Part shown: positions 15,415 to 48,640 of the stretch, piece after piece
Layout of the letters: every line of letters begins with the position of its first letter
How positions within the stretch are numbered: position 1 is the stretch's first letter
Assembly (NCBI GenBank): GCA_964036665.1
Contig: OZ038528.1
Location: forward strand, 8,004,501 to 8,068,500
From: Gordius sp. MW1
Lineage: Eukaryota > Nematomorpha > Gordioida > Gordea > Gordiidae
DNA: 64,000 nt
Direction of reading: 5' to 3'
Notes under the pieces: generated by a model
The model's database searches: none
Told to the model about the DNA's origin: nothing
The model's input: only the letters and a program-made list of their open reading frames with translations
Translations under genes and position numbers: made by a program

Positions 15415-15942
15415 TTATCCATCAGGTGCGAAAATGAACAGATTCCTCGGTGTGCCAACTCTGGAGCAAGCAACATATAATTGACCATGTGAAAAACATG
15501 GTTTTTCCAAATTCAATCCAGCAACGCTCAGTGATTGTCCTTGGGCTTTATTGATTGTAAATGCAAAAGCTAAGCGCACAGGGAACTGTAGGCGCTTTAA
15601 TTCGAAGGGCAAATCGGTTGGAAGCATTAGAATGCGCGAAATCAGAACATCTTCTCCTTTACTTTTGCCGTTGATGATTGTCGCTTCAATGACGTTTGGC
15701 AGTAGTTGTTTTACGACAAGTCTGGTTCCGTTACACAGCTTAGGTGGATTTAAATTGCGTAGGATCATTATAGGTGAGCCAATTTTCAGAGTCAATTTGT
15801 GAGGTGGCATTCCCGATGGTTCCAATGAATTTAGAAATTCAGTTGGATAATTCACCGCCTGATCTGCATCGATAACTGTGTCAACAGATGTGTAAGTAAA
15901 TGGTTCACCGGGAATGTTCAATAGGATGCGAATGGGTATCAA
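15415..15942 (-). pseudogene. Helitron PIF1-like helicase, C-terminal 175 codons
   Basis: The frame covers the last helicase motifs: GEPFTYTSVDTV, EFLNSLEPSGMPPH, LKIGSPIMILRNLNPPKLCN, LPTDLPFELKRLQFPV, NKAQGQSL (motif VI region) and CFSHGQLYVACSRVG, ending APDG followed by TAA. Related copies continue several residues further to a KNIVY end, so the stop is premature. Walker A and B, the Rep nuclease and everything N-terminal are missing. Confidence 0.9.
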
Positions 15943-17220
15943 TGCGAAAATTTTACCTTTACTTAAAAATAGTCATATAAGCATGGGTATCAATGCGAAA
16001 ATTGTTAAAATGTAAAATAAAAAATTATTAATTTTATTAATATTCACTTTTTTTGTAGCGTTGTTGGATAAGGGAATATATAAGGGAATTAGGTAAATTT
16101 AGTTGTTGGAAAATAACTGTTCATAGAGGATGGCATACAGGCATAGACATGGATGGGTATCAATGCGGAAATTGTACCTACTTAGAAATAGTCATATAAA
16201 CATGGGTATCAATGCGAAAATTGTTAAAATGTAAAAAAAAAATTATTAATTTTATTAATGTTTACTTTTTTTGTAGCGTTGTTGGCAAATCGGTCCAGTA
16301 GTTTTCGATCGAGTTTGTTTTATACGTCTTGACGTTTAATAGAATGTGGCTAAATAAATTAAAAAAATCTAATTTTGTCATTTTTTGCGCGTTAAATAAG
16401 GAGAAAAATGAAAATACTATTAACAAAGTGGCAATAAAACTTTTATCGGATTTAAAAAAAACATAAAGGAGTGCGGGAGGCGGGGCCAGTTAGTTATTAT
16501 TAGGTAAATTTCTTTCTTTGACCCTCATTCTATTAATGTCCCTAAAGGAGGGAAGAATGAAGGGACCTTTAAAAAGTGTAATAAATATAAAAACTTGGCT
16601 TACAATAGATTAAGAGGAAGTCCTCCTTAGCATTAGAATCGTTCGATAAATCTCTTTTTGTTAACTAATTATAATGGTGCCATCGAAATAATATTATTTT
16701 AATGTAAAATTTAATAAGGATTTGAATATATTTTTTCATAGTTAAAATCAACTTTTTTAGTTTTGACATAATTATCGTTTGTGGATCAGTTATAAATCAC
16801 TTAAAGAGATACGCAGTACGTCATGAGGTTGCGTTTGATTGACATTTTACGTTTGATTGACATTCTATTAAACGTCAAAACGTATAAAACAAACTCGATC
16901 GAAAACTACTGGACCGATTTGGCTCGAACACATCTTAAAACATGCTCCGGAGTGTGGGGAATAAACTTCGAAATTTTGAGCCAAATCGGTCTGATAGTTT
17001 TCCAAAATTGGTGGCGGCATATATACACACATACACACACACACATAGTTTGATTTTTATATATAAGATTACAAAGCTAAAAGTAATCCAAAATCATACA
17101 TATTAAAAGGTAAAATTACACACCAAGCTAACCGTTCTAGTTTTGAACATTAAGATAGCAGTTTATATACTGATCTCAACAATTATACCTGATACATAAA
17201 TAAAAAGGGATAAGTTATTA

Positions 17221-20576: not shown

Positions 20577-20778
20577 AAAGTGGGAACACTCTATATATGA
20601 ATACGACATTATAAATTTTTTCTACCATATTTTGGTTGCGATTTGAGGATCTATCAACCAAATTGAATGAGCTAATAAATCTGGGACATTGCGCGTTTTT
20701 TACAAATTGTCTCGGAAAAATTTTCAAAAATTAAATACAATATACAATTAAAACTTAAAAATTTATGTCAGGAATCTT
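20577..20778 (+). promoter_or_regulatory. CDK5 upstream flank (candidate promoter or 5' UTR)
   Basis: Only about 200 bp separate the hAT-like element from the CDK5 ATG. A TATATATGAATA stretch lies at about 20592. No other element is assignable, and a transcription start cannot be read from sequence. Confidence 0.3.
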
Positions 20779-21346
<568 letters not shown>

Positions 21347-23051
21347 TAGGAAATTTTATTATGTTATTAACTATTCACTAGTTTTTAGTTTTAGGCCTAG
21401 GACAAATTGTTAAAATTTTATAATTAATCTTATATTCAGCTTTTTGACTTGTTTTATTAGAAGGTTTAGTTTACAGGCTTTTTATATATTACAAATTTAA
21501 ATCAGTCTAAAGATTATTTATTATCCATTTTTTTACATCCTTATAACTTTTTATTTTTTGGTATTATAGAAATTGTTTTATCAGATAGAAAGGTTTATTG
21601 AAAATTCTGTCGGTTATAGTAAAATAAGGAATATTATTGCTTGCTTAACATATAGTCTAGCACATTGGATCTTAACTCCCATGTCCATTGCCCTTTTATG
21701 CACCAAATAAATTTATGTCATTACAGAAACAACTAAATTCCCTCAATTCAATGTCCTTACCAGGGGTATAAAATAAGAAAATCCTTTTGGTTAATACATA
21801 AAGACTATAAATTTAAATTTATAGTTGTTAATATATTAATTCCACAATTCCGGAGCATGACCAAAGGGGTGGGCAAAATTGTGAAAATTTTACTTTGTTT
21901 AAAAATATATTAATAAATGAATTGAAAATATGTATAGGCTCATAAAAGACTATAATACACTTATAAATCCAATTAAATATGTTTTTTCTTTTGAAATAAA
22001 TTTTTAACATGCTTTAAACCAATATTTTCCTTCTTCCAAATTTACTCGATAAATGGCTATCAAAATTAAAGTTAATTGAGCACTTTCTATACAAACTACA
22101 TGGTCCTCCCAAGAGATAGTTTTCTTCAGCTTTTATGTCAATAGCTATACATTATATAAATTGTATAATAAACAAGAAAAAACATGATAATGGCTAAGTA
22201 AAGAAAATACAATATGATACATTTGTACAATCATAACTTAAACCAAATATATATTTCTATTTCTGATGGACTGGCTTATATTTAAAGGAACATACTGTTA
22301 AAGCATGAAAAAATTTGAGTTGCATTGTAAACAAATATTTATCCCTGCCCCCCCCCCTGGCATAGCTAGGGGGAACCAAGGGGACCAAGCCTCCTCCTCC
22401 CAAAGAGCAAAATTCTGGTCCCTTTGGACCCCCTCCCCCTTTATTTAATATATCGTAATTTAATTAATAATTATTATTTATATTAGTTTTTAAATATGTA
22501 AATCTATTAACTGAGTAGTGACTTCTTTATATTAAATTCCCGCTTTGATTTTTTAAGGCAATTAAAGAATATTTGGATTCGGGTAATACGAAATTGTTAT
22601 AAATAAAGTCGCTATATAGTTTTACCAATTGTATCATTTAAAAAAATTTAAATTATTCTTGTTAATGTACCCGTTTATTTTGGGCTTTAATTAATTTTTA
22701 CAAACTTACTATATGCCATGTAATTTTATGTAGTGGTGGGAAAATAGGTGGGGCGGACCTTAGGTTCGCCCAAGGTCAGGTTTTAGGTTTAACCTGGGTT
22801 TTGCATCCACCCCAAACTAAAATTTTGGGCTAGATTCAAACTCTAGCCCAAAACCTTAGGTCGGAACGAAATGCAAAACCCTCACTAAGGTTGGGTCAGG
22901 TCACCCTGGGGTTTCCAAACATAAGGTATATTTTTTATATCCTAATATTTAGACTAATAACGGTCCCTAAGCAATTTTTTAAACTAAATAATTAATGATC
23001 ATTTTTTTAGATAAAAAAAATTAAAATAATATTGTATCCTAATATCAATAT

Positions 23052-23250
23052 ATAAAATAAACTCGGGCCTTCGGCCCTCGTGGGAAGGGGGAGGAGGGGA
23101 AGGTAAGGGAGAACGAAACTCATCTATACTCCGTATAGAAGTAGCATATTTGCTATGCAATTTATGGGCGAGAAAGGTGGGAAGGGGAGAGAATGCCTAT
23201 AGGGGGTATTAAATGCAAAATGATTAGTTAATTATTTATACAAATTTTCC
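23052..23250 (+). repeat. GGGCCTTCGGCCC / GCTATGCAATTTATGGGC repeat, copy 1
   Basis: Short GC hairpin GGGCCTTCGGCCC, purine-rich GGGAAGGGGGAGGAGGGG, then CTCATCTATACTCCGTATAG, TTTGCTATGCAATTTATGGG and CGAGAAAGGTGGGAAGGGG, ending near GGGGGTATTAAATGC. Other copies: 26820-27000 (inverted), 38165-38450 (direct, hairpin array expanded) and 54700-54870 (inverted). Confidence 0.8.
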
Positions 23251-23289
23251 ATCACTTTGGCCAGTGGTGATCTTTTCTAATGGTTAGCA

Positions 23290-24352
23290 GATAACCAAAT
23301 AACTAGCCTGTAAGTATAGTCAAGAAAAAAAAATCGATTTTAATCTCACTTTGGCCAATGGTAATTTTTTTCCATTGGTCAGCAGCCAGCGGACGGCCAA
23401 TAAGCCATATTATCAACGGTATTAACAAAAACAATATACTAATTTGAAAAAAACGAAAAAAAATTTCGAATCACAATTTGGCCAATGGTGATTTTTTTCA
23501 TTGGTCAGTAGCCAGGACATGGTTAAAAAGTCATATTATCAAGGGTATTAACAAAAACAATATATTAATTTAATATAAAAAAAATAAAAATTTTGCCCTC
23601 TCCGAGGGGCAGCAGCCAGCGGACGGCCAAAAAGTCATATTATCAATGGTATTAACATAAACAATATATTAATTTGAAAAAAAAAACGAAAAAAAATTCC
23701 GATTCACAATTTGGCCAATGATTTTTTTCCATTGGTCAGTAGTCAGGGCACGGTTAAAAAGTCATGTTATCAAGGGTATTAACAAGAACAATATATTAAT
23801 TTAATTTAAAAAAAATAGAAATTTTGCCCTCTCAGGGATTGAACTCGAACCTCCTGTTTACAAGCTGTTCTCTATAACCACTCACACCATGCTGGTATTA
23901 AATTGGTAGAAGTTATTTATATAGATAATGAAATATTAAAGTTGTGTTTTATGTTTATTATATAATAAAATGAAACAATAATAGAAAATCAGTATATTAT
24001 AGATAATTTAACGAATATAAATTATTATGAAAAAAATGGGGGGCCGCAAAAAATTATAAAATATTTGAATTGTCAATGTTAACCTAATATACCCAATTCA
24101 AAAACGTTTCGATTTATTTGGCCAATGGTCATTTTTTTTATTGGTCAGTAGTCAGCGGACGGTCAAAAATTCATATTATCAATGGTATTAACAAGAACAA
24201 AATATTAATTTAATTTAAAAAAAATAAAAATAATTTGTCCTCTCCTGGGATTGAACACTAACCTCCTGGTCACAAAGCTGGCGCCAATAACTTGGTGGAC
24301 GGACGGACAACGGACACCAAAAAACGAGCCCATAAATTGCATAGCAATTAAT
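23290..24352 (-). repeat. tRNA-derived SINE copies and tail units, mostly minus strand
   Basis: On the minus strand a head (TTAATTGCTATGCAATTTAT ... GTCCGTCCGTCC, up to 24352) precedes AGTTATTGGCGCCAGCTTTG and a B-box-like GTTCAATCC (24240-24300). A T-rich linker follows, then the tail ending GGCCGTCCGCTGGCTACTGA / CCAATG. A second tRNA-like segment (23836-23893) and several tail-only units (near 23380, 23500, 23610, 23730 and 24150) follow. Confidence 0.75.
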
Positions 24353-24912
24353 AATATCATATAAATACACGACTATATTGTAATAATAAATGTAAATGTA
24401 TTATTTAGATTATCGCCATCTGTAAACTATTTTAAGTTAGATGAACACATTATATCCCGCACGCACCATATTTATTAACAATCTCTCTTAATTTCATAGC
24501 ATATGCATAGCTTGTAGCAGCTCGCACTCTCCCCTACCCCCCCGCCTCCCTCTCTTAACTTATGCAATGCGTCATAGCATAGTAGCGCATCGCCTCCCAT
24601 ACAAAATAATATTTAGGTGATGTGGGGTTGGAGCGGGGTGGAACAGGGATGGCCCGGAGTGGAGCAGGGTTGGAACAAGGCGATTTGGGTGTGAATATTT
24701 TGGAGCAAGGGTATCCCCATGCTCTCATTATAAGCTGGGTTGTGTGAGAAGGAGGGGGAGTTATATGCATGTTATATGGTGCTGTGCTACTACTACACAC
24801 ACCACACACAATAACTTATATATAAAGGGCAATCCGTAAAAGGATATAATGTGGTTATCTAAATTAAAATCGTTTACAGAGGGCGAATACCTAATTTGAT
24901 ATATTATTTTTA
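24353..24912. other. AT-rich to G-rich spacer inside the hAT-like element
   Basis: Nothing recognised. A GTGGGGTTGGAGCGGGGTGG-like stretch (24615-24680) with short direct repeats and an ACACACCACACACA run near 24790 are the only structure. Confidence 0.4.
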
Positions 24913-25080
24913 ATTGCTATGCAATTTATGGGCTCGTTTTTGGTTGTCCGTTGTCCGTCCGTTGTCCTCCCTATCTATTTGCATTGGGTATATTAGGTTA
25001 TCGCTTTTTTAAATTAATGCATGAGAAAGAGGTGCCCCACCCCTCATCTCTATCTCCCTCGGTGTGTTATATATAAGATT

Positions 25081-25520
25081 TGTTAAATTATCTATTATAT
25101 AATAAACACAAATAAAAGTTGTTTACTTTTAATTGCTATGCAATTTAACTAGTTATATAATAAACATAAATAAAAGTTGTTTACTTTTAATTGCTATGCA
25201 ATTTAACTAGTTTTTGTTATATAATAAACATAGACATGGGCGTACGCAGGTTTTGAATTAGGGGGGGGCAAAACGCTTAAAAGTTCATTTAGAGGGGGGC
25301 AAAACATAATTTTTTTTAATTTTTCAATGTTTTTGCATTGAACAAATTTTTTTTTCATAAATTAGGGGGGGGGGCAGCCGCCCCCCCCCCCTGCCCCCCC
25401 CCTGCGTACGCCCATGAACATAGATAAAAGTTGTTTACTTTTAATGCTATGCAATTTAACTAGTTATATCATAAACATAAATAAAAGTTGTTTACTTTTT
25501 AATTGCTATGCAATTTAACT
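25081..25520 (+). repeat. about 60-bp tandem repeat (AAAAGTTGTTTACTTTTAAT unit)
   Basis: The unit is TATATAATAAACATAAAT, AAAAGTTGTTTACTTTTAAT, TGCTATGCAATTTAACTAGT. Copies lie near 25095, 25153, 25214 (interrupted by the MITE at 25235-25416) and 25455, with another at 25742-25803. Two inverted copies are at 38043-38170. It shares the GCTATGCAATTTA core with the SINE heads. Confidence 0.82.
25235..25416. mobile_element. 182-bp GGGCGTACGC MITE, perfect target duplication
   Basis: CATGGGCGTACGCAGG at the left, CCTGCGTACGCCCATG at the right. Flanks AACATAGA (25227-25234) and AACATAGA (25417-25424) are identical. It sits inside one unit of the 60-bp tandem repeat, so the empty site can be read from the neighbouring units. 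Confidence 0.92.
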
Positions 25521-25529
25521 AGTTTTGGG

Positions 25530-26610
25530 GTTAGAATCCCGCAGTTTTTTTTGACTCTTGTTACTATCATTGATAATATGAATTTTTGGCCGTCCGCTGG
25601 CTGCTGACCAATGAAAAAAATGACCATTGGCCAAAATGTGAATCGAAATTATTTTTTTCGTTTTTTTTTTGACTATTATGATTGTTCCTGTTTCTACCAT
25701 TTGTATTATGACTTTTTGGCCGTCCGCTGGCTGCTGACCAATGTTATATAATAAACATAAATAAAAGTTGTTTACTTTTAATTGCTATGCAATTTAACTA
25801 GTTTTTGGGTTAGAATCCCGGAGTTTTTTTGACTCTTATGATTGTTCTTGTTACTATCATTGATAATAAGACTTTTTGGCCGTCCGTTGGCTGCTGACCA
25901 ATGAAAAAAATGACCATTGGCCAAAATGTGAATCCTAGTTTATTTTTTCGTTTTTTTTTGACTATTATGATTGTTCCTGTTACTACCATTGCTATTATGA
26001 CTTTTTGGCCGTCCGCTGGCTCCTGACCGATGGAAAAAATGACCATTGGCCAAAATGTGATTCGAAAACTTTTTTTTCATTTTTTTTTAACTATTATGAA
26101 TTTATATCCACTTTTACCGTGTCCTGGTTGCTGACCAATGGAAAAGATGACCATTGGCCAAAATGTGAATCAAAATTTTTTTTTTCGTTTTTTTTTGACT
26201 ATTATGATTGTTCCTGTTCCTACCATTGCTATTATGACTTTTTGGCCGTCCGCTGGCTGCTGACCAATGGAATAAAATGACCATTGGCCAAAATGTGATT
26301 CGAAAACTTTTTTCGTTTTTTTTGACTATATGAATTTATATCCACTTTTAACGTGTCCTGGCTGCTGACCAATAGAAAAAAATGACCATTGGCCAAAATG
26401 TGATTCGAATTTTTTTTTCGTTTTTTTACTCTTATGAATTTATATCCACTTTTACCGTATGCTGGCTGCTGACCAATGGAAAAAAATGACCATTGGCCAA
26501 AATGAGCATCAAAATTTTTTTTTCCTTTATTTTGGCTATCATTGACTTATAGAGTATCTGTTGGTACTGACCAATAGAGAAAAAGTGACCATTGGCCAAA
26601 TTTTTAAAAA
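25530..26610 (+). repeat. satellite array, 105-135 bp unit (SINE-tail derived)
   Basis: The unit is TTTTTGGCCGTCCGCTGGCT, GCTGACCAATG, AAAAAATGACCATTGGCCAA, AATGTGAATCGAAA, a T run with one CG, then GACTATTATGATTGTTCCTG and TACTACCATTG. TGACCATTGGCCAAA occurs near 25621, 25911, 26041, 26148, 26279, 26385, 26487 and 26587. Units near 25517 and 25805 start with GGTTAGAATCCCG, a B-box-like tRNA sequence. The apparent short ORFs in this array are repeat artefacts. Confidence 0.88.
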
Positions 26611-26734
26611 ATTTCTCCCAACAATTCTGCAAATTCTTAACATTGTGTTGTTTTATAATATAATGTTTGTTAGACCCATAATCACTAAAGGCCATAAAAA
26701 CTAATGTAATACGCAACTAGATGCAAACACTAAA

Positions 26735-27120
26735 TCTAACCCTAACCCTTGCCTATATTACATTTTGCCTTTATTACATTTTGCCTATAATTGAAAATTT
26801 GTATAAATAATTAATTAATCATTAGGCATTTAATACCCCCTATAGGCATTCTCGCCCCTTCCCACCTTTCTCGCCCATAAATTGCATAGCAAATATGATA
26901 CATTTATACGAAGTACAGATGAGTCGTCCCCCCTTCCCTTCCCCTCTTCCCTTCCCTTCTCCCCCTTCCCACGAGGGCCGAAGGCCCGAGTTTTTTATGT
27001 ATTGATATTAGGATACAATATTATTTTAATTTCTTTTTTAAATCTAAATAAATCATAATTATTAATTTAATAAAAGAAATTGCTATAGACCGTATTCAGT
27101 CTAAATATTACCATAGATAA
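26735..27120 (-). repeat. GGGCCTTCGGCCC / GCTATGCAATTTATGGGC repeat, inverted copy
   Basis: Reverse complement of the block at 23052-23250, including GCCCATAAATTGCATAGCAA and GGGCCGAAGGCCC. It forms the inner part of the inverted arm of the hAT-like element. A TCTAACCCTAACCCTTGCC segment precedes it (also at 19940). Confidence 0.75.
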
Positions 27121-28089
27121 AAACCATAACTTATGAGTTGAAACCGTGACCTGACCTTGGCGTTTGTCAGGGTTTTGGGATTCGTTCCGACCTAAGGTTT
27201 TGGGCTAGAGTTTGAATCTAGCCCCAAAATTTTAGTTTGGGATCTTGGGGAACCCTTAGGTGGATGCAAAACCCAGGCTAAATCTAAAAGGTTTTAGGGT
27301 AGGTTGTTTTAAAACCAGTTTGAATCTGACCCCAAAATTTTAGTTTGGGATCTTGGGGAACCCTTAGGTGGATGCAAAACCTAGGCTAAACCTAAAAGGT
27401 TTTAGGTTAGGTTGTTTTAAAATGACCTTACCTAAAATCTCAGGCTTGGGTTTATAAAGCCCCGGGTTTTCCCATCACTAATTTTATGTAGCCTTAATAT
27501 AATCTTTTTAATTACATAATTTTGTTGTTATTTAACTCATTATAAATATATATTTTATTGCGGGTAATTTCGCTTAAAGACCTTCCACAAGATTACTATA
27601 AACTAACGGGCTCGGGCCCGCAGATCCCGTTACAAAATAATATAGATTTTTTTCTATTATAAAGTCAAAATGTGTTTTAATGTTTTATATTAAATTATAA
27701 TTATGTAATATTTATTAAATTAATTGAAATAAAATTTTATTATTCTAGTTAGAGATCTGCAACGGGCCGTTTTTAGAAGTTCTGCCCGTCCGTAAATTTT
27801 TCAGGCCCGTCCGTACCCGTTTAGAAAAACGTCAGGCCCGTCCAAGCCCGTTCAAATTTTTATAAAAGAACTCCGCGCCCGGCCCAATTCATTTAAAGTT
27901 TCATAAAAAACACCAATAATTATAATGTAAAAATAATAAATCATCAACGAGAGGTGTCTTTGAGGCCTCTAAAAGAACTGAAAAATTTCCTATTAGACAA
28001 ACCCTTCTTGCTCTATACTATAATATCTCTATTATCCTGATATTTATCTAATTTTCAGTTATCATTTTCATTTGTCTAAATTTTGAATG

Positions 28090-28900
28090 CAAGACCGAGG
28101 CTATTTTATGATAACGATGAAGTACAAGTTTGTCTCTTAAAGCTTCTTTTAAACGATTCTTTATAATGTTGATTTGTCCGCCGAATAAATCGCAATCCGA
28201 TATTGCATTAATTAATTTAATCTTCCATATATATTATTGGAGAGAAGCCTCTTTAGCCGCAAAACTTCTATTAAATATTTTAACATTTTATCTATATATT
28301 CCAAGTATGAAAGTTCATTCCATTGTTCTCATTTCATCTTGGTCATAAACTTTACAATTTGACATTTTGATGCAAGGTCGGGGACAGCTTGCTATTAAAT
28401 CCACTTTGTTTGAATTGCCTGACTAATTCTTAGAGGCATTCATGAGCTTATAAACAACCGTGGCTTCTTGATTTAGGAATGAAACATTAAACGCCATTTT
28501 TATTATCTTGTTTTAAGGTGTGTTGCGCAATTTAATCTTTGATAATTGTCTAAAGCCTTGAAAATATTAGCACCCTGATCAGTGACAAATATTGATTTCA
28601 GGGCTTATTCATTAGTAATGCCGAAAGTCATTAATTTATTCAATATTTCGTTTCTAATATTGTCTCCTGAATGCATAAAGAGGTTGTAAACAATATTTTT
28701 CTCTAAGGATAACATTGATATAATGAATACCTAAAGTAGAAAACTGATTTTTGTGTAATCAGATGTCCACCCACATGTCCGTTGCAGCCGCGCAAAGTCC
28801 GTTCTGGTGTAATGTTTAATTTTTACAATTATATAAAATCGTAGTCTTGCAGCCTCATCTTTCACGTCAAATAATTTGTCCTCAATCATATATGGTTATG
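28090..28900 (-). pseudogene. hAT transposase fragment, minus strand, multiply stopped
   Basis: Reading the minus strand from about 28800: a TDMW box, then NQFST, ILNKLMTFGIT, FVTDQGANIFKAL (central hAT catalytic-region motif), then a LNCATH block and scattered later residues (WNELSYLEYIDKMLKYL). At least ten in-frame stops and several frame changes occur. The C-terminal hAT dimerisation domain is not recognised. Confidence 0.75.
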
Positions 28901-28949
28901 AAAAAATAGTAAAGCTTGGGAACAATACGATCTCTTAATGGATGTTAAT

Positions 28950-29490
28950 GGTGAATCTGTTAGTGCCTGCATCTGAAAAAATTGCCAAGAAATTCTTTCC
29001 TATAAATCAGTAGACGGGACATCACATTTGAAACGCCACAAATTATATCCCGAAAACAAAATAGCTTAACACTTGATCATTATATCTATAGAATAAACCC
29101 TTTAAAAGAAGAGAAATTAAAAAATCAGGCTATGATCTTTTGCGCTAAAGATTTACGTCCATTTGAAACTTTAGCAGGAGAAGGATTTATTGGGTTTTGC
29201 CAGAAATCATGCCGCATTCATCAAATCATCCTGAAAGACTCCGACTTTCTATAATTCCAGAATTTAAACATTATATTCAGAATGGACTTTGTGGGGCCAC
29301 AACGGACATGTGGACATCTGATTATAAAAATCAGTTTTCTCACTTTAAGTATTCATCTTATCAATGTTATCCTGAGGAAAAAATATTATTTACAACCCCT
29401 TGCATGAAAAAAATCAGGGGACAATATTAGAAATGAAATATTAAATAAATTAATGACTTTTGGCATTACTAATAAAGTTTCAACCCGATG
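28950..29490 (+). pseudogene. hAT transposase fragment, plus strand, BED finger to TDMW box
   Basis: Plus-strand frames give GTSHLKRHKLYPENK (second half of a BED zinc finger), then after a frame change CAKDLRPFETLAGEGFIGF, then a third frame with CGATTDMWTSDYKNQFSHFK. These are consecutive hAT blocks. The last roughly 200 bp are homologous, in opposite orientation, to 28640-28800, so two transposase pieces sit head to head inside one element. Confidence 0.82.
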
Positions 29491-29918
29491 TTGGGTACGG
29501 TCGGGTTTCGGGTCGCCCGTACAGGTCTCTCTACATAGTGGCTATTTGAACGAAGTACATATTTAAAATAGCTTATCTATTTAAACTAGTAAATTTTTTT
29601 TTTTTTTAATAGTCTAAAAGTTTTATTCAGAAACAAATAATTATAATTATGATATACACGAATAACTTTATTAATTGCCATGCAATTTATGAGCTCAATT
29701 TTTTATAAAGATAGGCTTTTACATCAAAATAATTAGTTGATTAAACGATAGCAAGAGAAATTTTTGATTCTTTATTCCAAACTCATCCTTGTTTTAAACC
29801 ACGAATAATAACAACCTAATTTATTTTATAATTGCATGGTGAAATAATTTTCAAATTTAATATTTATTTAATCGTTTTTAATAATAAATACACTCCCTGG
29901 CCGAATCCATTTGTATGG

Positions 29919-30614
29919 TAGGGCTGCACCGATATCAAATTTTTAACCGATACCGATACTACCGATATTTAAATAAATATACCGATACCGATATTTTACA
30001 TCTTATAAAAATGACACCTGTTAATATTTATAAAGCTTTATTTAAAATATTCCAAATTTTTTTTTCATATTTATTGCAGTTATCAATTGTACAGGCTGCA
30101 ATATGTGCTGAGTTCTCATCAATTATAAAATAATTCCAAATTAATGACTTGCTTTTAGACCTAAATATAATTTAATTTAAATAAAGTCAATATAAGGCCA
30201 TTTGAATTAATAATACACAACATAGAATGTTATTCTAATTTAAAATATTTTAAATGCTTTGTTGATAAATATTATATAATATATATATTAAAAATCGTAT
30301 ATACAATATATAATATAAAAATAAATACATTATATTATAAATTTTAAATATAAACTAACTTACATAATAATATAAATAAGTGGTGGTAGAAATTTGAATG
30401 AATAAATCAATGAAAAAATAAATTAGATTTAACAGCAATTAAGTAAAATTTAATTTAAAAAGTATATAGATATACAGCTCTAACAAATATAAAATATTTG
30501 TAAAAAAAGTTTCAAGTATCGGTATCGGTATCGGTCGATTAATAACCGATACCGATATCGTTAAAAAATCGTGATATCGGTACCGATACCGATACCGATA
30601 TCGGTGCAGCCCTA
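29919..30614. mobile_element. hAT-like MITE, TAGGGCTGCACCGATA termini
   Basis: Left TAGGGCTGCACCGATATC mirrors right GATATCGGTGCAGCCCTA. Both ends carry runs of ACCGAT / ATCGGT: near 29935-29995, and at 30515-30605 as a GGTATC microsatellite. The interior is AT-rich with no coding capacity. A matching 8-bp duplication is not evident. Confidence 0.8.
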
Positions 30615-30874
30615 TAACCATAATTGAATTCATTTTGATAAAAAACATAGTTTATAATAAATATGCCTTTATCATTAAAAATAATTTCTCTAGACTCTAT
30701 TTTTGAAAAAATTCTTGCGCTATAAATGTTTTTTATAAAATAATATTTATTATATTACGAAATTTTTCTAATTATAAGTTATAGTCAAGTTACATTATAA
30801 GTCATCACCTTATAGGATACATATTTGAGTTTTGAAATTCGTAGGCATTTTTACCTTACTTTTCAATTTTATAG

Positions 30875-31442
30875 AATGGGGAATTAAAATTAGCAGATTT
30901 TGGTTTGGCTAGAGCCTTTGGAATTCCTGTAAAATGTTACTCATCAGAGGTAATTTTGCTTATCATACCCTAATGTTATCTAGGTGGTCACATTATGGTA
31001 TAGACCTCCTGATGTTCTGTTTGGTGCCAAAATATATTCAACTTCTATTGATATGTGGTCTGCTGGTTGTATTTTTGCTGGTATTAATAATTAACATCTA
31101 TAGATTATGGATTTTTAAAGAATTGGCAAATGCTGGAAAACCTTTGTTTCCTGGTTCAGACATTGAGGATCAATTGCGGAGAATATTTAAATATCCTTTT
31201 TCTTTTTTAGTTGCTTTTGATAAAAATTTAAAAATAAATTTACTTAACTCGTCTGCTTTTACATTATTGGGTACACCAAGTGAAGAAGAATGGCCTGATA
31301 TGACTCACCTACCAGAATACAAGGTAAAATTAAATTGGAAGTTATTTATTATTTTACCTAGCCATACCCTCCCTACCCACCATCAGTCAATTTTGATTTT
31401 ATTGTACCAACTTTGTCTCAAAAAGGAGTTGAGCTTTTAAAG
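30875..31442 (+). CDS. CDK5: cyclin-dependent kinase 5, exons 6-10 (last exon not found)
   Basis: Exons are 30875-30949, 30984-31080, 31121-31190, 31263-31323 and 31362-31442. They encode [73 protein letters not shown] and the [11 protein letters not shown] region. Introns are 34 bp (GT-AG), 40 bp (GT-AG), 72 bp (AT-AC, U12-type) and 38 bp (GT-AG). Together with exons 1-5 this gives 264 codons. Human CDK5 is 292 residues, so one final exon of about 28 codons (the NP..R.SA.EAL.H.YF region) should follow the donor at 31443. I did not locate it in the downstream sequence. Confidence 0.93.
31191..31262 (+). other. U12-type AT-AC intron in CDK5, 72 bp
   Basis: The sequence starts ATATCCTTTT (consensus U12 donor ATATCCTT), carries TACTTAACTC 13-22 bp before its end (branch consensus TCCTTAAC) and ends TTTTAC. 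Removing it joins AA|A and restores the conserved [14 protein letters not shown] run. No GT-AG alternative does. It is a multiple of three and has no stop codon. Confidence 0.92.
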
Positions 31443-32480
31443 GTAATCATTAATAATATTAGTTGAGTAATTATAATTAATATATTTTTTTCGATAGAAT
31501 TAAATTATATTATTTTATTTTTTTATGCAATTTGAGGTTTCCAGTATTAGTTTAAATAATTTAAATCACCTTATGTGAAGTAATTGTTATTAAGTTAATT
31601 GAAAATTTATTTGTAGAAAATAATTAGTTATTCATTTAACATTTAGAGTCAGTGTCAAAAAAATTTTTATTTTGCCCTTTTTTTGTTTAATTTGAATTTA
31701 AATTATTCAAATTTTTACAAACCTTTACCACAAAAGATTTGTGCCTTTTTAAATAATTATTGATACGCCATCTGCTAAAGGAAAAATGTTTTTCACTAAA
31801 GACCTTTAGTACTTTTTCTAAAAATCTAAACATCTCCATGCTGTCTAACGATGATTTTTCAATATGTTTGCGCGTTGGAAGAAATAATACTGTATGGGCT
31901 TTGAAGGATATAATTTATACGAAAAAATTAGAAATTTATTTAGGTTAAGTGCCATACTATTTTAAAATAAATAAATATCAGCGACCGACTAAAGTAAGAA
32001 GAATAACATTCCCCCCTAAATATTTTTTTTTGATTTCCTCAACTTTAAATTTATTTTTTCTAAAGATAGGCCCCCAGGCCCGATATATCAAATTTTTTCC
32101 TCTATTCATTTCAACAACTACCTTACCATTTACTAACATTGAAAATATATACGCACATTTATCTTTTGGTATAAAGATATAATATATAGATCAGAATTTA
32201 TTAATCGAGAATTAGATTAAAAGTTATTGAAAATTATAACGAAATTTCTGCTATAAGTATAACTACTCAACCATTAGGGCTTGGCAGCTCTAATGTTTGA
32301 GGAGTGTCAGGGCGGACTTTTAAAAAGTTCGTGCCGGTGTAAGGTTAAATTTGTGCGTTAAGTAGGAAATACGCTTATACACGTCAATCACGTTCTAATG
32401 ACAGATACACTTTGAAATTTTTACACACGGCAATTACGTTTACATGACATCCATATAATTCAGTTGCATATATAATTACA
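31443..32480. other. region downstream of CDK5 exon 10
   Basis: Starts with a GTAATC donor and is AT-rich. A last CDK5 exon is expected somewhere beyond but is not recognised here. No repeats of note. Confidence 0.45.
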
Positions 32481-33095
32481 CTAGTCTACAAGAAAAATCA
32501 ACCGGGAAACGGTCAACATATTCTGATAGAGTTTTTGTGGTGAACACAAATATGTTTTTCGTTTTTTTCCTATACGTCAAGTTTTTTAGATATTTGGATT
32601 CAAAGTTGCGCAAATGACCGTTTTAGACCCTTTTCGATGCTCAATAGAGCGATAGTGAATGGCTAAAAAAAAATTTAAACTTCTAAGGGGTAGAACCAAC
32701 TTAGGGTAAAACATTGAAAAATGATTTTTTCCCCTATTGTTTTTACTTTTTCCAATATATCAAATTTCAATTAGTCCCTACGCGAAGCGGCATCCTTTGA
32801 GCCTCCCTCTCTAATTAATTGGGTTTATAACACTATACTCTTGGTGCATGTGAGTGATTGATGGATGATGTGGGGGTGGGGGTGTGTAAAAGTAGTGGCG
32901 TAATACGAGCTATTCCTCTAGTAGAGAGGGAGGATGACAGGCGTAGTAGTAGGAATAGTTCGTATTAACCCACTACTCTTGCACCCACCACACTCATCAA
33001 TCACTTACATGCATTAAGGGTATAGTGTTATATAAGCATATAAGCCAATTAGATAGAGAGGGAGGGAGGGTCAAAGGATGCCGCGATTTTGAAAA
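32480..33095. mobile_element. foldback (long-palindrome) element, copy 2
   Basis: The left end has AGAAAAATCAACCGG and GTGGTGAACACAAATATG, like the 42506 element. The palindromic part is 32778-33092: CGGCATCCTTTGAGCCTCCC at the left, GGGAGGGTCAAAGGATGCCG at the right, and matching inner blocks (CACTATACTCTTGG.GCATG; CAATCACTTACATGC). The centre is near 32930. Arms are about 150 bp and imperfect. The loop holds CTATTCCTCTAGTAGAG. Confidence 0.8.
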
Positions 33096-33129
33096 ACAAT
33101 ATCTATATTATGAAAAATATTGCAAAATA

Positions 33130-33835
33130 AGTTTTATTTAATAAATAATACTGGTTATAAATTAAGTGAGTTATTAAAGTATAATATTTTACCTATTAAG
33201 TTCCTATGAAAGTATAAGTGGATAATGGATACTTGGCAAAATTTAGTTTTTCTAATATTTGGCTTTTAAGTTACTATAAAAGAATAATTACATCAAAGTT
33301 ATTAAGTTAAATGGTTACTTGGTAAAAATTGGTAGTGTATTTAGTTAGTAATACTGGTTATAAATTAAGTGAGTTGTTATTAAAGATAATATTTTACCTA
33401 TTAAGTTCCTATGAAAGTATAAGTGGGTAATGGATACTTGGCAAAATTTAGTTTTTCTAATATTTGGCTTTTAAGTAACTATTAAAGTATAATTACATCA
33501 AAGTTATTAAGTTAAATGGTTACTTGGTAAGAATTGGTAGTGTACAAATATCCTGGAAAAATGTGATGGATATTTGGCAAAATTTAGTTTTTCTAGTATT
33601 TGGCTTTTAAGTTACTATTGAAGTATAATTACATCAAAGTTATTAAGTTAAATGGTTACTTGATAAGAATTGGTAGTGTACAAATATCCTGGAAAAATGT
33701 GATGGATATTTTGCAAAATTTAGTTTTTCTAATATTTGGCTTTTAAGTTACTATTGAAGTATAATTACATCAAAGTTATTAAGTTAAATGGTTACTTGGT
33801 AAGAATTAGTAGTGTACAAATATCCTGAATGCCTT
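33130..33835 (+). repeat. tandem repeat, 205-bp and 136-bp unit forms
   Basis: The core TTGGCAAAATTTAGTTTTTC recurs near 33235, 33440, 33576 and 33711. The first two units contain GGTTATAAATTAAGTGAGTT and CCTATTAAGTTCCTATGAAA. The later ones replace this with ACAAATATCCTGGAAAAATG. All share ACATCAAAGTTATTAAGTTA. Confidence 0.88.
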
Positions 33836-33912
33836 TCGATTGAAAACGCGATAGGAAACCAATTGAAATACGCTCCACTCCACGTGTAATGAACATTCAC
33901 GCTAATCATATT

Positions 33913-35483
33913 TAGTGTTTCGATCTCGTCTCGGTCTCGAAAACAAAATCTCGTCTCGTCTCGGGAGCGATTATTAAAATCTCGTCTCGTCTAAAAAAAT
34001 CTCGGTCTCGTCTCGACGAGAATTCTCGTCTCGTCTCGACTTTTTTAAAAAAAAATATATACGAAATAAAAATTTCTCTTGATTTATTAAAAATGTTAAA
34101 TAAGTGTCAAAAAATTCAAATGGCAAACCTTAATATTTTTTGAAAAACTTTAATACACAAACTTTTTAAAGATTCAGCGGGACACGACATCTCACTGACA
34201 ATATAAAGAAATGAATTAATTCATAAAGATAACATTTTCTATAAAAAGTGCAGACTACAAAAACTATAAAGAATTTGAAATATATTTAGAAAATTAAATT
34301 TTATTGTTTTAGCAAATTATAACATTTGTATCAATTCACAGTGTCTGTCAATATAAATAGACTTAGAAAATTATAAGTTCGCTTATAGTTGACTTAGTTG
34401 CATAATTGAGCAAATTGAGACCCTTTCCCTTGCTAAAGTTTCAAAGTAGACTTAACATATTGGCAAACGTTTAATAGCCCATAGTTTTTATTGCATGTTT
34501 ACAATAGCGCTATAAACCACAAAGGAATGACTTTTAATGATATTATTATTATTTACAGAATTGATTACTAGTAGCACAAATTCAAACGTTGTAAAAACAA
34601 CAATAAAAGCAGCATTATTATAGGATTAAGAACATTTAAACTTTAAATTAAAGTGCAGTTATTTCAATGTATGACAAAAATCATTATAATCAAGTTTCTA
34701 TTCCAAATAATTACCTTACAATTCCAATTAACTTTGCCATTTATCGAATAGAGTATAGGTTCGCGTATTTATTTTATATTGCACAATTATAGAAATTTTA
34801 GTAAATTTGAATGGACTTAATTGAAGCATAAAAACTTCTAAGAGACTTATGATTTAATATTTAATCTATTACGGTTTCGTTAAATACTCTTACTTTTGAA
34901 ATCGTTAGGCGGGTGCTCAAAAGTCTTGAGCCATTTTAGCTCAACTTTTATAATTATTCAAACTGATTGACTACCAATTTATAATTAACGCATCATGCAG
35001 GATGAGTAACTGCGAAATACAAATATGCTTTAGTAATATTTACTATTCCTTCAGAAATCATTCTAAGCCAAAAATCTTGTAATATTTAATAATGCTATGA
35101 ATAATTATATGTGAGAAATATATAATAAAATTGTTCACATACCCTTAGGGTTAACCATATAATTAAAATAAATGATTGATAAATTTTAAATCTTTTGCAA
35201 AAATGTATAATATTTACTACACTTAGGAATTTTTTTAATGTAAAAAATATTCCTTACATATTGATATACACTTAATACCTTAAATGTAAATCATGTAAAT
35301 TAAAACACACAATAATTTACTAAAATCTAACGATCAATAAAAGTCGAGATCTCGCCGAAAAAATCTCGTATCGTCTCGTCTCGACATCAAAATTCTCGTC
35401 TCGATCTCGACTCCATTTTTCAAATTCTCGTCTCGGTTTTTCGAGACGAGACCGAGATTTTTCTCGGTTTTTCCGCATCATTA
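33913..35483. mobile_element. hAT-like element with CTCGTCTCG subterminal repeats
   Basis: The left end TAGTGTTTCGATCTCGTCTC and the right end CTCGGTTTTTCCGCATCATTA are inversely related. Flanks ATCATATT (33905-33912) and ATTATATT (35484-35491) match at 7 of 8. Both subterminal regions are packed with CTCGTCTCG / CGAGACGAG repeats (33925-34045 and 35343-35470). The 1.3 kb interior is AT-rich with no transposase frame. Confidence 0.82.
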
Positions 35484-36685
35484 ATTATATTTATCAAATT
35501 TGATTATAACCAATCAAATTGCGGCGCACAAATATCCTGGCGTATTTTTAACCTGCTACATCGGCAATTTGGTTATAAAATTGCATCGGGCCGGGTTTGT
35601 CAGAAATGTTTGAACAAATCTGACCTCTGATACTTTTGGGATTGGTGATTTTTTGTCTGACTTTAAACATAAGAATTTATAATTTGAATTTTACCGTGGT
35701 AATCTAAGTGAGAGGTGCAATTGGTGCACCAACATTTTTTCATATTCCCTGTTAGCTAATTAAATTTTTTTTTTATTTAGCCGGTGTTAAAATACTTTCT
35801 AACTACTGCAATCCATATTAATTGTAAGACTTGAATCCTTAAATTATGATCCTTTGTTAAACAAGTCGAGGCATTGTCCAATGGCCCAGGAATAGTTTGG
35901 CTAATTTTAAGCGTCGTTGAGACCGATTCTTTATTTTCTGGCTTCTTTGGCGGCCTACCTTTGGTTTACTAATTTGATCTCCGACACCTAACAAATAAAC
36001 CTATCTTTGTCTCATGTTTTTGCATTTTGACGTGGAATTTAATATTAGCCGTTTATTGCAATACTACCACGTCCCAACGTGTCAATTTTTTAATAAAGTT
36101 TCTCCTGTACACATAATAATTAAAAAAAATTGATGTCTGTGAGATATTAAAATATAACACGCGCAATTACGCCAATAACAACTGATTGATTTACCTATAC
36201 ATACGTTTTTTTCATATTATAAATTATTTTGATTAGAGATGTGAAATTTTTTTATACTAGTTTTAATCCGTATTAATAAAATACACTTAATTTATATTTA
36301 GCATTTGCTCGTGTGCAATCCTTCCAAAAGAATATCAGCCGAGACCGCCCTTAAAAGAGATTATTTTTTAAATAATAATCTATAACATGCATTAAATTTG
36401 TAATCACGTAAAATTTGTCATTAATTTGCCTTTTGATAAATTGGTCTTTTAATGGGTGAGTATAATTATACTTACTTAAGCTTATTTTTATATGCTTGTA
36501 AAAAATATTTATATTCATTCGCATTTTTTATCTACTACATGTCAAAACACTATTTTTTGGCTTTGTTTATAAAAATTCAATAAATTAAGAATCAAATGTT
36601 AATATGATATCAATAAATTGAAAAATAGCATGAAGTTTATATAAATATATTCACATAATTTTATTTTTATTTTAAAGTGGCATTA
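35484..36685. other. AT-rich region, no gene recognised
   Basis: A weak minus-strand stretch (about 36010-35860) reads KGRPPKKPENK before and after stops and may be a transposon relic. Otherwise featureless. Confidence 0.4.
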
Positions 36686-44059: not shown

Positions 44060-44404
44060 CTAGATGAACCCGGCATACGTTGTTTTGCCATTTACCCTGG
44101 TGTCTTGAATTATGCTGGAATTTTAGGGCATATATGATGATAAAGCGGTTATTGAAGTAAAAATAAAGTTTGATGGCTATATGTTCTACTTCTATTGTTC
44201 TATTTCCGTATACAGTGCAACGCGTACGAATACACGAAAACTACTGGACCGATTTGGCTCGAACAAATCTTAAAACATGCTCCGGAGTGTCAGGAATAAA
44301 CTGTGAAATTTTGAACCATATCGGTTTGATAGTTTTCCAAAATTGGTGGCGGCATATATACATTATACATACACACACATATAGTTTCATTTTTATATAT
44401 AAGA
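44060..44404 (-). mobile_element. short non-autonomous Helitron, complete (345 bp)
   Basis: On the minus strand it begins TCTTATATATAAAAATG (44404 downward) and ends GCCGGGTTCATCTAG at 44060, followed by T. The 5' segment contains the family block GTGGCGGC...GACCGATTTGG in complement. There is no coding capacity. Its 5' end abuts the CTAG of the next Helitron with no spacer. Confidence 0.87.
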
Positions 44405-45752
44405 CTAGATGAACCCGGCAAACGTTGTTTTGACCCGGGTTCCCGATGCTGGTTCCGTTACACAACTTAGGTGGATTTAAATTGCGAAGGATCATTATAG
44501 GTGAACCAATTTTCAGAATCAATTTGTGAGGTGGCATTCCCGATGGTTCCAATGAATTTAGCACCGCCTGATCTGCATCGATAACTGTGTCAACAGATGT
44601 GTTAGTAAATGGTTCACCGGGAATGTTCAATAGAATGCGATTATTTATTTTGTTCACGTCGTCATTCTTCGGAGCCAAGATAGCCCGTTCATAAAGCCAG
44701 TCGTTATTTGTGAAGTTAATAAGAATTTCCGGGAACACCATATTTACGACATCTTCAATTGATGACTGTATTTTGCAAAAGTGCGATTGAAATGATATTT
44801 CGTGCGTTGTAGGTTCAATTGGAAATTTACCGTCTCCCAAGTCCAACAGTTGGTTAGCAAATGGTTGCGCCGAATCATCTTGAAGTAAATGAACACGCAT
44901 GTTGGTGGTTAGCGTGATTATCTTCACACTTCTCCAAAGATATGACGCTTTCAGGCAAGCATTAAGCTCATCTGAGGTGTTGACTTTGGGATGACTGGCA
45001 AGGTTTGACAAAAGTCACCGGTTAGCAGCAAGAGAGCTCCTCCCATAGGACGTGCAATCTGTCTCAAATCTCGGAGTATACAATCCAGCGCCTCGAGTGC
45101 TTCTTTATGTGCCATCGTACATTCATCTCAAATGATGATTGTGCATATTTTTATCGCATTCCAGAGTGTCAGGAATGAAGTGTGAAATTTTGAACCAAAT
45201 CGGTCTGGTAGATTTCCAAAATTGTTGGCGTCTCCGATTATTTGTAGATTGTCGGGATGGAAAAAAAGGCTCCGATTATTTGTAGATTATCGGGATGGAA
45301 AATTTTTTTTTCGCATTCCGGAGTGTCAGGAAAATAGGTCTAGGAGTTTTCCAAAATTTGGCGGCTCCGATTATTTGTAGATTGTCGGGATGGAAAAAAG
45401 GCTCCGATTATTTGTAGATTATCGGGATGGAAAAAATTTACCTTTAAAACAATTCTGATTATTTGTATTGTTTCTGAATAAAAATAAACGTCTTATCATT
45501 ATTAAATTTAATTGTTGTCACAAAATGACGTCATATGACGTCTTTATTAAGTGCCAAAACTTATAAAACAAAAATAACTTGACCTCTCGAAAACTACTGG
45601 ACCGATTAGGCTGGAACAAACCTTAAAACATGCTCCGGAGTGTGGGGAATAAACTGTGAAATTTTGAGCTAAATCGGTCTGCTAGTTTTACAAAATTGGT
45701 GGCGGCATACACACATAGACATACACACATAGTTTTATTTTTATATATAAGA
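44405..45752 (-). mobile_element. Helitron with decayed helicase, 1.35 kb
   Basis: 5' TC at 45752-45751 (flanked by A); 3' CTAG at 44408-44405 after GTTTGCCGGGTTCAT. The helicase relic occupies 44460-45135. Its 5' side also holds short direct repeats of CTCCGATTATTTGTAGATTG with TCGGGATGG (45229-45430). It stands in tandem with the 44060-44404 element. Confidence 0.85.
44455..45135 (-). pseudogene. Helitron helicase relic, minus strand
   Basis: Reads DECTMAHKEALEALD (Walker B region; the preceding Trp codon is TGA), GALLLLTGDFCQTLPVIPKS, a frame change, ADELNACLKASYLWRSVK, TTNMRVHLLQDD, NEVFPEILIN-type sequence, RAILAPKNDDVNKINN, GEPFTNTSVDTV and LKIGSPIMILRNLNPPKLCN. There it breaks off. 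Walker A and the last motifs (NKAQGQS, CSRV) are missing. Confidence 0.85.
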
Positions 45753-46298: not shown

Positions 46299-47275
46299 CA
46301 AAGTTTCATTTAATAAAAACAGCCCACTTCAAGATATTACAAATAATTTCTCCATATGTTGGCTTATATTTCTGAAAAGTCTAAACCCAAGAACACAACA
46401 CATCATGCATTAGAAACAACTGAAATCACTGCTGTTAAGTAACCTCAATTTTATTACACTACATTTTTACTTTAATTTTTAGCATACAAAGTTTCATTTA
46501 ATAAAAACAGCCCACTTCAAGATATTACAAATAATTTCTCCATATGTTGCCTTATATTTCTGAAAAGTCTAAACCCAAGAACACAACACATCATGCATTA
46601 GAAACATCTGAAATCACTGCTGTTTAAGTAACCTCAATTTTATTACACTACATTTTTGCTTTAATAATTTTTTAAGCCCACTTCAAGATATTACAAATAA
46701 TTTCTCCATATGTTGCCTTATATTTCTGAAAAGTCTAAACCCTAGAACACAACACATCATGCATTAGAAACAACTGAAATCACTGCTGTTTAAGTAACCT
46801 CAATTTTATTACACTACATCCCAAGAACACAACACATCATGCATTAGAAACAACTGAAAGCACTGCTGTTTAAGTAACCTCAATTTTATTACACTACATT
46901 TTTACTTAAATAATTTTTTAGCATACAAAGTTTCATTTAATAAAAACAGCCCACTTCAAGATATTACAAATAATTTCTCCATATGTTGCCTTATATTTCT
47001 GAAAAGTCTAAACCCAAGAACACAACACATCATGCATTAGAAACAACTGAAATCACTGCTGTTTAAGTTACCTCAATTTTATTACACTACATTTTTGCTT
47101 TAATAATATTTTAAGCCCACTTCAAGATATTACAAATAATTTCTCCATATGTTGCCTTATATTTCTGAAAAGTCTAAACCCAAGAACACAACACATCATG
47201 CATTAGAAACAACTGAAATCACTGCTGTTTAAGTAACCTCAATTTTATTACACTACATTTTTACTTTAATAAACT
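46299..47275 (+). repeat. tandem array inside Helitron, 165-190 bp unit
   Basis: GCCCACTTCAAGATATTACA recurs near 46322, 46510, 46675, 46950 and 47116; a partial unit at 46820 lacks it. Each unit continues TTTCTCCATATGTTG, CACAACACATCATGCATTAG and ACCTCAATTTTATTACACTA. Short units (about 165 bp) lack the GCATACAAAGTTTCATTTAA start. Confidence 0.9.
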
Positions 47276-47297
47276 TAATTATAACCAAGAAGATCTT

Positions 47298-48640
47298 TTG
47301 TTTTATGGCTCTAATGTTTCAAGGCTAACACTCCAACAAAAAGCCATTTATGATACAATATTATTAGCTGTTAATAAAGGTTCTGGAGATATTTTTTTCT
47401 TAGATGCTCCTGGCGGAACTGGTAAAACATTTTTACTGCCTTTACTTCTTGCAACTGTTCGATCCCAAAATGAAATAGCCGTGGCTCTTGCATCTTCCGG
47501 AATAGCTGCGACATTGTTGCCTGGTGGTAAAACTGCTCATTCAGCATTAAAATTGCCTTTAAACATTCATTATAGCGAAACTCCCATGTGCAACATTTCC
47601 CGAGCATCTGGAATGGGTAAAGTATTAAAAAGGTGCAAACTTATCGTTTGGGATGATTGCACAATGGCCCATAAAAAATCGCTCGAAGCTCTAGATCGTT
47701 CTTTGCAAGATTTGCGGCGAGATTCCAGACCATTTGGTGGCGCATTTTTATTGCTTGCAGGAGATTTCAGGCAAACTTTACCAGTGCTTCCTCGATCAAC
47801 CCCTGCTGATGAGCTCAATGCTTGCCTAAAATATTCTATTTTGTGGCCTTAGGTCAAAACCTTAAATTTAACTACTAATATGCGTGTAATGTTACAAAAT
47901 GAGCAAGCATGTGAGATTGGAAATGGAACCGTGCCCGTCGATATAAACACAGGACGGATTTCATTTCCTACCAACTTCTGCCATTTTGTGTCGTCCAAAA
48001 CAGCTTTGGTAGAAAAGGTTTTTCCAAATATTAACACCCATTATCAGGATCGAATATGGCTCCGTCAACGGGCTATTCTTGCCCCAAAGAATAAAGACGT
48101 CCAAGAACTTAACAATCTCATTCCATCTACAATTGACGGCACTCCAGTTACCTACAAACCGGTTGACACTGTTGTTACTGCTGATGACGCTGTTAATTAT
48201 CCGCTCGAATTTTTAAATTCGCTAGATCTCCCAGGCATACCACCACACGTTTTGCATTTGAAAATTGGCGTGCCGATTATGATGTTGCGCAATGTTAATC
48301 AGCCAAAACTTTGCAACGGCACACGTCTTGCTATTAAACGCTTAATGTGCAACGTTGTTGAGGCCACGATTTTGACTGGACCTTGAGAAGATGTCCTCAT
48401 ACCACGGATCCCTTTGATTCCAACAGATTTACCATTTGAATTCAAAAGATTGCAATTTCCTTTTAAACTCGCATTTGCTATTACCATTAACAAAGCTCAA
48501 GGCCAGTCTCTAGAAATTTGTGGTATAGATTTAGAAACAGATTGTTTTTCACTCGCGCGTCGGCAATCCACAAAATTTGTATATCTACACAGATAATAAC
48601 ATGACCAAAAATATCGTCTATCCCCAAGCATTATAGCAAT
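47298..48640 (+). pseudogene. Helitron PIF1-like helicase with two in-frame stops
   Basis: One frame runs throughout: DAPGGTGKTF (Walker A), ASSGIAATLLPGGKTAHSAL, IVWDDCTMAHK (Walker B), GGAFLLLAGDFRQTLPVLPR, then a TAG stop (47850-47852) within LW..VKTLNLTTNMRV. It continues RAILAPKNKDVQELN and LKIGVPIMMLRN, then TGA (48384-48386), then PTDLPFEFKRLQFP and NKAQGQSL. Just after CFS, a short deletion shifts the CSRV block out of frame. Similar elements have a Rep domain upstream; here its place is taken by tandem repeats. Confidence 0.92.

What the first reader, a model, noticed from the sequence alone, without database searches (positions are those of the whole stretch)
31191..31262. AT-AC (U12-type) intron preserved in CDK5 of a genome with ultra-short introns
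Donor ATATCCTT is an exact match to the minor-spliceosome consensus, the branch-like CTTAAC lies close to the 3' end, and the ends are AT and AC. Only this excision restores the conserved RIFKLLGTP run. My recollection is that mammalian CDK5 also has an AT-AC intron; if the position is the same, this is an ancient minor intron that survived severe intron shortening. It predicts that this organism keeps U11, U12, U4atac and U6atac.
Basis: partly seen in the sequence, partly recalled or inferred. Interest (0 to 1): 0.75.

Follow-up and report, generated by a model that had tools for sequence, protein, structure and literature searches.

The report
Rare-class intron in animal CDK5 gene
A 72-base stretch in a probable animal's CDK5 kinase gene very probably is an intron of the rare AT-AC (minor, U12) class, apparently at or near the place where mice also have one, so it looks like an old feature kept in a gene most of whose other introns are tiny; a sound but not startling example.

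Summary
Window 31191-31262 is a 72-nt phase-2 interval in a complete 11-exon CDK5 gene (20779-36385; 291 aa, 76% identical to human CDK5). Removing exactly these 72 nt gives a match to human CDK5 without a gap over residues 1-287. Of 6,048 in-frame excisions tested within 31121-31323, only three registers of this same deletion tie for best, and only AT-AC is a known splice pair. The donor ATATCCTT is the full U12 consensus, TTACTTAAC resembles the U12 branch site, and the end is AC. The other 17 introns that I modelled in the window (CDK5, GALNT-like, NAA40-like) are GT-AG. Mouse Cdk5 has a published U12 intron downstream of the same IFAELA peptide, so common descent is likely; exact position and termini were not seen.

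Qualifications: the 72 nt is a multiple of three without a stop, so retention would add 24 residues; composition argues against that. The motif is not rarer than chance window-wide; its location is the evidence. 'Ultra-short introns' is half right: 9 of 18 are 34-52 nt, 7 of 18 are 0.7-9.5 kb. No genome or RNA data were available, so the minor spliceosome is untested. Verdict: convincing, ordinary U12 AT-AC intron.

The parts
31191..31262 (+). CDK5 intron 8, candidate U12-type AT-AC intron, 72 nt, phase 2, between RIF and LLGTP
31191..31198 (+). 5' splice site ATATCCTT, 8 of 8 to the consensus quoted in PMC2831892
31240..31248 (+). branch site candidate TTACTTAAC: 8 of 9 to TTCCTTAAC (recalled consensus), 7 of 8 to the TCCTTAAC quoted in PMC2831892; A's at 31246 and 31247
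31261..31262 (+). 3' splice site AC
31121..31190 (+). CDK5 exon 8 ([23 protein letters not shown])
31263..31323 (+). CDK5 exon 9 ([20 protein letters not shown])
20779..36385 (+). CDK5 coding gene from start to stop codon, 11 exons, 291 aa
20816..20849 (+). CDK5 intron 1, GT-AG, 34 nt
20939..20972 (+). CDK5 intron 2, GT-AG, 34 nt
21041..21075 (+). CDK5 intron 3, GT-AG, 35 nt
21194..21244 (+). CDK5 intron 4, GT-AG, 51 nt
21341..30874 (+). CDK5 intron 5, GT-AG, 9,534 nt, rich in repeats by eye
30950..30983 (+). CDK5 intron 6, GT-AG, 34 nt
31081..31120 (+). CDK5 intron 7, GT-AG, 40 nt
31324..31361 (+). CDK5 intron 9, GT-AG, 38 nt
31443..36301 (+). CDK5 intron 10, GT-AG, 4,859 nt

Best explanation
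31191-31262 is a U12-type AT-AC spliceosomal intron in a probable animal's CDK5 gene. By established knowledge of the class, U11 and the U11/U12-48K protein would recognise AUAUCCUU and U12 would pair with UUACUUAAC; U6atac/U4atac with U5 would then carry out splicing at the AC end, joining RIF and LLGTP in phase 2. It most likely descends from the minor intron that mammalian Cdk5 also carries. Shown here: the sequence signals, the exact restoration of CDK5, and intron-like base composition. Inferred: actual splicing, presence of the minor spliceosome, and common descent.
For: Removing the 72 nt aligns the protein to human CDK5 without a gap over residues 1-287 and is the best of 6,048 in-frame excisions, tied only by two other registers of the same deletion. 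Donor 8 of 8; its +3..+8 bases match 6 of 6, against 1-3 of 6 in the other nine CDK5 introns and 0-3 of 6 in eight introns of two other genes. Branch site 8 of 9, A's 15-16 nt from the end, against 5-7 of 9 in the other nine CDK5 introns. AC terminus. GC 21% against 37% and 41% in the flanking exons (range over the 11 exons 27-41%), and a coding-versus-intron score of -2.4 bits against +4.1 to +17.4 per 72 nt for the 11 exons (exon scores are trained on the same exons). PMC2831892 (passage) gives ATATCCTT, TCCTTAAC and AC as the original class signature. PMC12332006 (passages) lists a Cdk5_U12_intron primer pair in work on mouse cells; the forward primer encodes IFAELA, and the reverse primer encodes no stretch of human CDK5 in any frame, so the mouse minor intron probably lies downstream of IFAELA. 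In the window the first intron downstream of that peptide is this one (intron 7 splits the peptide itself).
Against: No RNA evidence. The 72 nt is stop-free and a multiple of three (about 10% by chance), as an in-frame insertion would be. Its -2.4 bits lies near the top of the short-intron readings (3 of 21 are higher). The branch site discriminates weakly: the GT-AG intron 2 has the same CTTAAC 10 nt from its end, intron 10 has CTTAAT, introns 3 and 7 have TTAAC. The 17 GT-AG introns were modelled by hand with GT-AG ends in mind. Minor-spliceosome genes could not be searched. Exact mammalian position and termini were seen in no source.
Confidence: 0.92

Rival explanations
1. The 72 nt is exonic: a 24-residue in-frame insertion in CDK5 between RIFK and LLGTP, and the splice-like motif is accidental.
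For: No stop, multiple of three, one ORF 30913-31440 runs through it; a phmmer search of the read-through ORF still finds CDK5 on both sides, and a retained segment still matches Pkinase (42.6 bits).
Against: Insertion exactly where a perfect U12 donor and an AC end coincide has a chance of about 3e-6 under the base-frequency model. Composition is intron-like. It would interrupt a run that is otherwise gap-free against human CDK5.
Confidence: 0.05
2. A true AT-AC intron removed by the major spliceosome (U2-type AT-AC, or a spliceosome changed to accept non-canonical ends).
For: U2-type AT-AC introns exist (title of Wu and Krainer 1997 in a reference list; fractions of 0.01-0.05% in a table passage of PMC7367187). 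The CTTAAC branch site would also fit U2, and GT-AG intron 2 carries the same hexamer.
Against: The donor is the full ATATCCTT, the U12 signature; U2-type AT-AC donors resemble ATAAG (recalled). A passage of PMC7367187 says AT-AC introns are poorly recognised by the U2-type spliceosome. The 17 other modelled introns are GT-AG.
Confidence: 0.03
3. A GT-AG or GC-AG intron overlaps the site and the AT-AC reading is wrong.
For: An AG follows a T-rich tract at 31209-31210 and GT dinucleotides lie nearby.
Against: Of 12 in-frame GT-AG and 7 GC-AG excisions none scores above retention (best 1156 and 1141 against 1178; AT-AC 1212); of 386 excisions of any length with GT/GC/AT donors and AG/AC acceptors, 31191-31262 is best. 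Only excisions of at least 15 nt inside 31121-31323 were tested.
Confidence: 0.01

Closest known systems
U12-type (minor) AT-AC introns of animals
   Same: ATATCCTT donor, CTTAAC branch site close to the 3' end, AC end, one minor intron among several major ones
   Different: At 72 nt it is short, though not a record: PMC10639083 gives a median of 39 bp for Blastocystis minor introns (section 24)
Mouse Cdk5 U12 intron (PMC12332006)
   Same: Same gene, and probably downstream of the same IFAELA peptide
U2-type AT-AC introns
   Same: AT and AC termini
   Different: Donor here is the full U12 signature, not a U1-like one (the U1-like form is recalled)

Membership tests
U12-type introns | Extended 5' splice site RTATCCTT | tested here: met
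   ATATCCTT 31191-31198, 8 of 8
U12-type introns | Branch site like TTCCTTAAC close to the 3' splice site | tested here: met
   TTACTTAAC 31240-31248, 8 of 9, A's 15-16 nt from the end; but CTTAAC also occurs in GT-AG intron 2; the usual 10-20 nt spacing is recalled
U12-type introns | AT-AC or GT-AG termini that restore the reading frame and protein | tested here: met
   AT-AC; best of 6,048 in-frame excisions, tied by two registers of the same deletion
U12-type introns | No polypyrimidine tract of the U2 type | tested here: inconclusive
   TCGTCTGCTTTTAC follows CTTAAC; pyrimidine-rich but short; no control was run
U12-type introns | Removed from RNA by the minor spliceosome | not testable with these tools
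   No RNA data and no genome held
U12-type introns | Genome encodes U11, U12, U4atac, U6atac and specific proteins | not testable with these tools
   Genome not held; no Rfam match in the 64 kb window at gathering thresholds
Conserved animal CDK5 minor intron | Same position and phase as in mammals | tested here: inconclusive
   Mouse U12 intron probably lies downstream of IFAELA; exact junction not available
CDK5 | Kinase with the PSSALRE helix, best match CDK5 rather than other CDKs | tested here: met
   PSSALRE present; five PDB CDK5 sequences at E of 1.3e-155 or lower against 5e-111 for the next kinase, CDK3

The most novel reading that the evidence does not exclude
The organism belongs to an animal lineage reported to have lost the minor spliceosome (nematodes, myxozoa, oikopleurids and tardigrades are named in a passage of PMC10639083), and this intron is either a survivor that contradicts the loss or is now removed by an adapted major spliceosome.
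Probability: 0.04. Interest if true: 0.65.

Novelty: new member of a known kind. Interest (0 to 1): 0.3.

Why it matters
It is a clean, testable marker that this lineage keeps the minor spliceosome although half of its modelled introns (9 of 18) are only 34-52 nt. Short minor introns help to show how small a U12 intron can be in an animal. Because the 72 nt is frame-neutral and stop-free, an annotation pipeline that allows only GT-AG would probably call a 24-residue insertion in CDK5 (my inference), a plausible source of error in gene models.

Tried and rejected
Own-genome search for U12 snRNAs: no genome is held. CDK5 relatives with genomic DNA were sought in viral contigs (4, 203 and 14 pattern matches, none confirmed) and genome contigs (34 matches, none confirmed; 87 matches, 1 confirmed); that one, a kinase fragment in a bacterial MAG (L001, 52% over 27 residues), was not pursued. 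Literature for the exact mammalian CDK5 intron: searches. Of the papers these listed with CDK5, I opened PMC12332006 (direct evidence), PMC8324491 and PMC5560066 (passages; CDK5 there is not discussed for a U12 intron of its own); the other papers listed with CDK5, PMC12595767 among them, were not opened. Two older papers were not held. A GT-AG alternative was rejected. The 72 nt as a repeat copy: rejected; blastn against the window gives, besides itself, only short matches, the best covering 21 nt. My first boundaries for one GALNT-like intron broke the frame and were moved. Identity of the organism: unresolved; an animal is likely from 76% identity to human CDK5; a flatworm-like lineage was considered from the mix of tiny and kb-size introns and AT-rich repeats (recall only). 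Searches and passages of PMC11410931 did not settle it.

Full report
Site.

Gene. The assembled model has 11 exons from the start codon at 20779 to the stop codon at 36383-36385 and encodes 291 aa, 76% identical to human CDK5. Its best solved relatives are CDK5 chains (best E=2e-156), far ahead of the next kinase (5e-111, CDK3), and the PSSALRE helix is present. Pfam gives a full Pkinase domain. The ten introns are 34, 34, 35, 51, 9534, 34, 40, 72, 38 and 4859 nt; nine are GT-AG and one, intron 8, is AT-AC. It is in phase 2, splitting the K codon of RIF-K-LLGTP.

Uniqueness of the excision. All 6,048 in-frame deletions of 15 nt or more inside 31121-31323 (donor starts up to 31309) were scored against human CDK5. 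The best score, 1212, is reached by three registers of the same 72-nt deletion: AT-AC, TA-CA and AT-AT. Retention scores 1178. The best of 12 in-frame GT-AG deletions scores 1156 and the best of 7 GC-AG deletions 1141. The best in-frame GT-AC (39 nt, 1191) and AT-AG (18 nt, 1184) deletions exceed retention but not AT-AC. Among 386 deletions of any length with a GT/GC/AT donor and an AG/AC acceptor, 31191-31262 is first.

U12 signals. PMC2831892 (passage seen) describes the class by ATATCCTT at +1 to +8, branch site TCCTTAAC and an AC acceptor. Here the donor is 8 of 8; the branch site TTACTTAAC is 8 of 9 to TTCCTTAAC (recalled longer form; 7 of 8 to the published octamer) with A's 15-16 nt from the end; the acceptor is AC. 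At +3 to +8 the other nine CDK5 donors match 1-3 of 6, and seven GALNT-like and one NAA40-like donors 0-3 of 6. Against this, the branch site discriminates weakly: intron 2, GT-AG, has the same CTTAAC 10 nt from its end, intron 10 has CTTAAT, and introns 3 and 7 have TTAAC. The GT-AG introns were also modelled by hand with GT-AG ends in mind, so their uniformity is not independent evidence.

Chance. ATATCCTT occurs 4 times in the window on both strands, against 5.1 expected in shuffles; GTATCCTT occurs 0 times (1.8 expected). The triple ATATCCTT...TTAAC...AC occurs once, here; 8 of 100 shuffles hold at least one. So the motif is not rare window-wide. What is unusual is its coincidence with the 72-nt deletion that best restores CDK5: about 1e-4 for the octamer in three registers, about 3e-6 with the AC end too, under base frequencies of the seven short GT-AG CDK5 introns. 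This is a post hoc estimate from a simple model.

Result against the reading. The 72 nt has no in-frame stop and is a multiple of three, so it lies within one open frame, 30913-31440. Such a run has about a 10% chance in intron-like sequence. Retention would add 24 residues. Base composition favours an intron: GC 21% against 37% and 41% in the flanking exons (27-41% over the 11 exons); coding-versus-intron score -2.4 bits, against +4.1 to +17.4 bits per 72 nt for the 11 exons. The seven short introns give 20 of 21 negative frame readings, but only 3 of those 21 are higher than -2.4, so the 72 nt sits at the upper edge of the introns, below every exon. The exon and short-intron scores were trained on those same sequences, and the last exon was scored with its stop codon and five further bases; the 72 nt was in neither training set.

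Ancestry. PMC12332006 (passages seen) includes Cdk5 among transcripts tested for minor-intron retention in AML cells with a disrupted Rnpc3 locus and gives a Cdk5_U12_intron primer pair (mouse by context). The forward primer encodes IFAELA of CDK5; the reverse complement of the other primer encodes no stretch of human CDK5 in any frame, as expected inside an intron. The mouse minor intron therefore probably lies downstream of IFAELA. In the window intron 7 splits that peptide and the first intron downstream of it is the AT-AC one. The exact mammalian junction, phase and termini were not seen; that it is AT-AC at RIFR|LLGTP is recalled.

Surroundings. A GALNT-like gene on the minus strand (63617 to about 57.7 kb) has seven GT-AG introns of 801, 1416, 719, 52, 88, 51 and 1199 nt, and an NAA40-like gene has one of 2,700 nt at 8466-11165 (further upstream exons not sought). 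Both gene names are recalled; the NAA40-like protein has Pfam acetyltransferase matches, and the GALNT-like one was not scanned. Of 18 introns in these three genes, 9 are 34-52 nt, 2 are 72 and 88 nt, and 7 are 719-9,534 nt. The window is thus mixed, repeat-rich with many tiny introns, not uniformly shortened. No Rfam family reaches its gathering score in the window and the organism's genome is not held.

Literature context. PMC10639083 (sections 24, 25, 26 and 32 read; other passages) names nematodes, myxozoa, oikopleuridae and tardigrades as animals that lost the minor spliceosome, reports minor introns in Schistosoma, and finds that minor intron length follows major intron length across species, with the exception that some species with heavy minor-intron loss keep long minor introns; Blastocystis minor introns have a median of 39 bp. 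A 72-nt minor intron beside 34-51-nt major introns fits the general pattern.

Conclusion. A convincing, ordinary U12-type AT-AC intron at a probably ancient CDK5 position. Splicing and the minor spliceosome itself are inferred.

Noticed in passing
20770-20779: An AG (ttatgtcag) lies 7 nt before the CDK5 start codon, as for a 5' UTR intron or a spliced-leader acceptor.
   Followed up: no
57730-63617 (minus strand): GALNT-like gene (name recalled), 8 exons, 520 aa to the first stop, ending shortly after the NVYP motif, so without an obvious ricin-type lectin tail; it may continue in further exons.
   Followed up: partly
8202-11403: NAA40-like acetyltransferase (name recalled; Pfam Acetyltransf_1) in two exons separated by a 2.7 kb GT-AG intron; upstream exons not sought.
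   Followed up: partly
21341-30874: CDK5 intron 5 (9.5 kb) looks packed with repeats by eye: ggccgtccgctggctgctgaccaatg-like units in both orientations, apparent inverted copies around 22.7-23.2 and 26.8-27.5 kb, and hAT-like fragments near 29 kb (label recalled); no repeat tool was run.
   Followed up: no
15415-15972 (-), 44241-45014 (-), 47217-48386 (+): ORFs that look like fragments of PIF1/Helitron-like helicases (family recalled, not scanned).
   Followed up: no
672-1816: Two overlapping ORFs that look like a Gypsy-type integrase (family recalled, not scanned).
   Followed up: no
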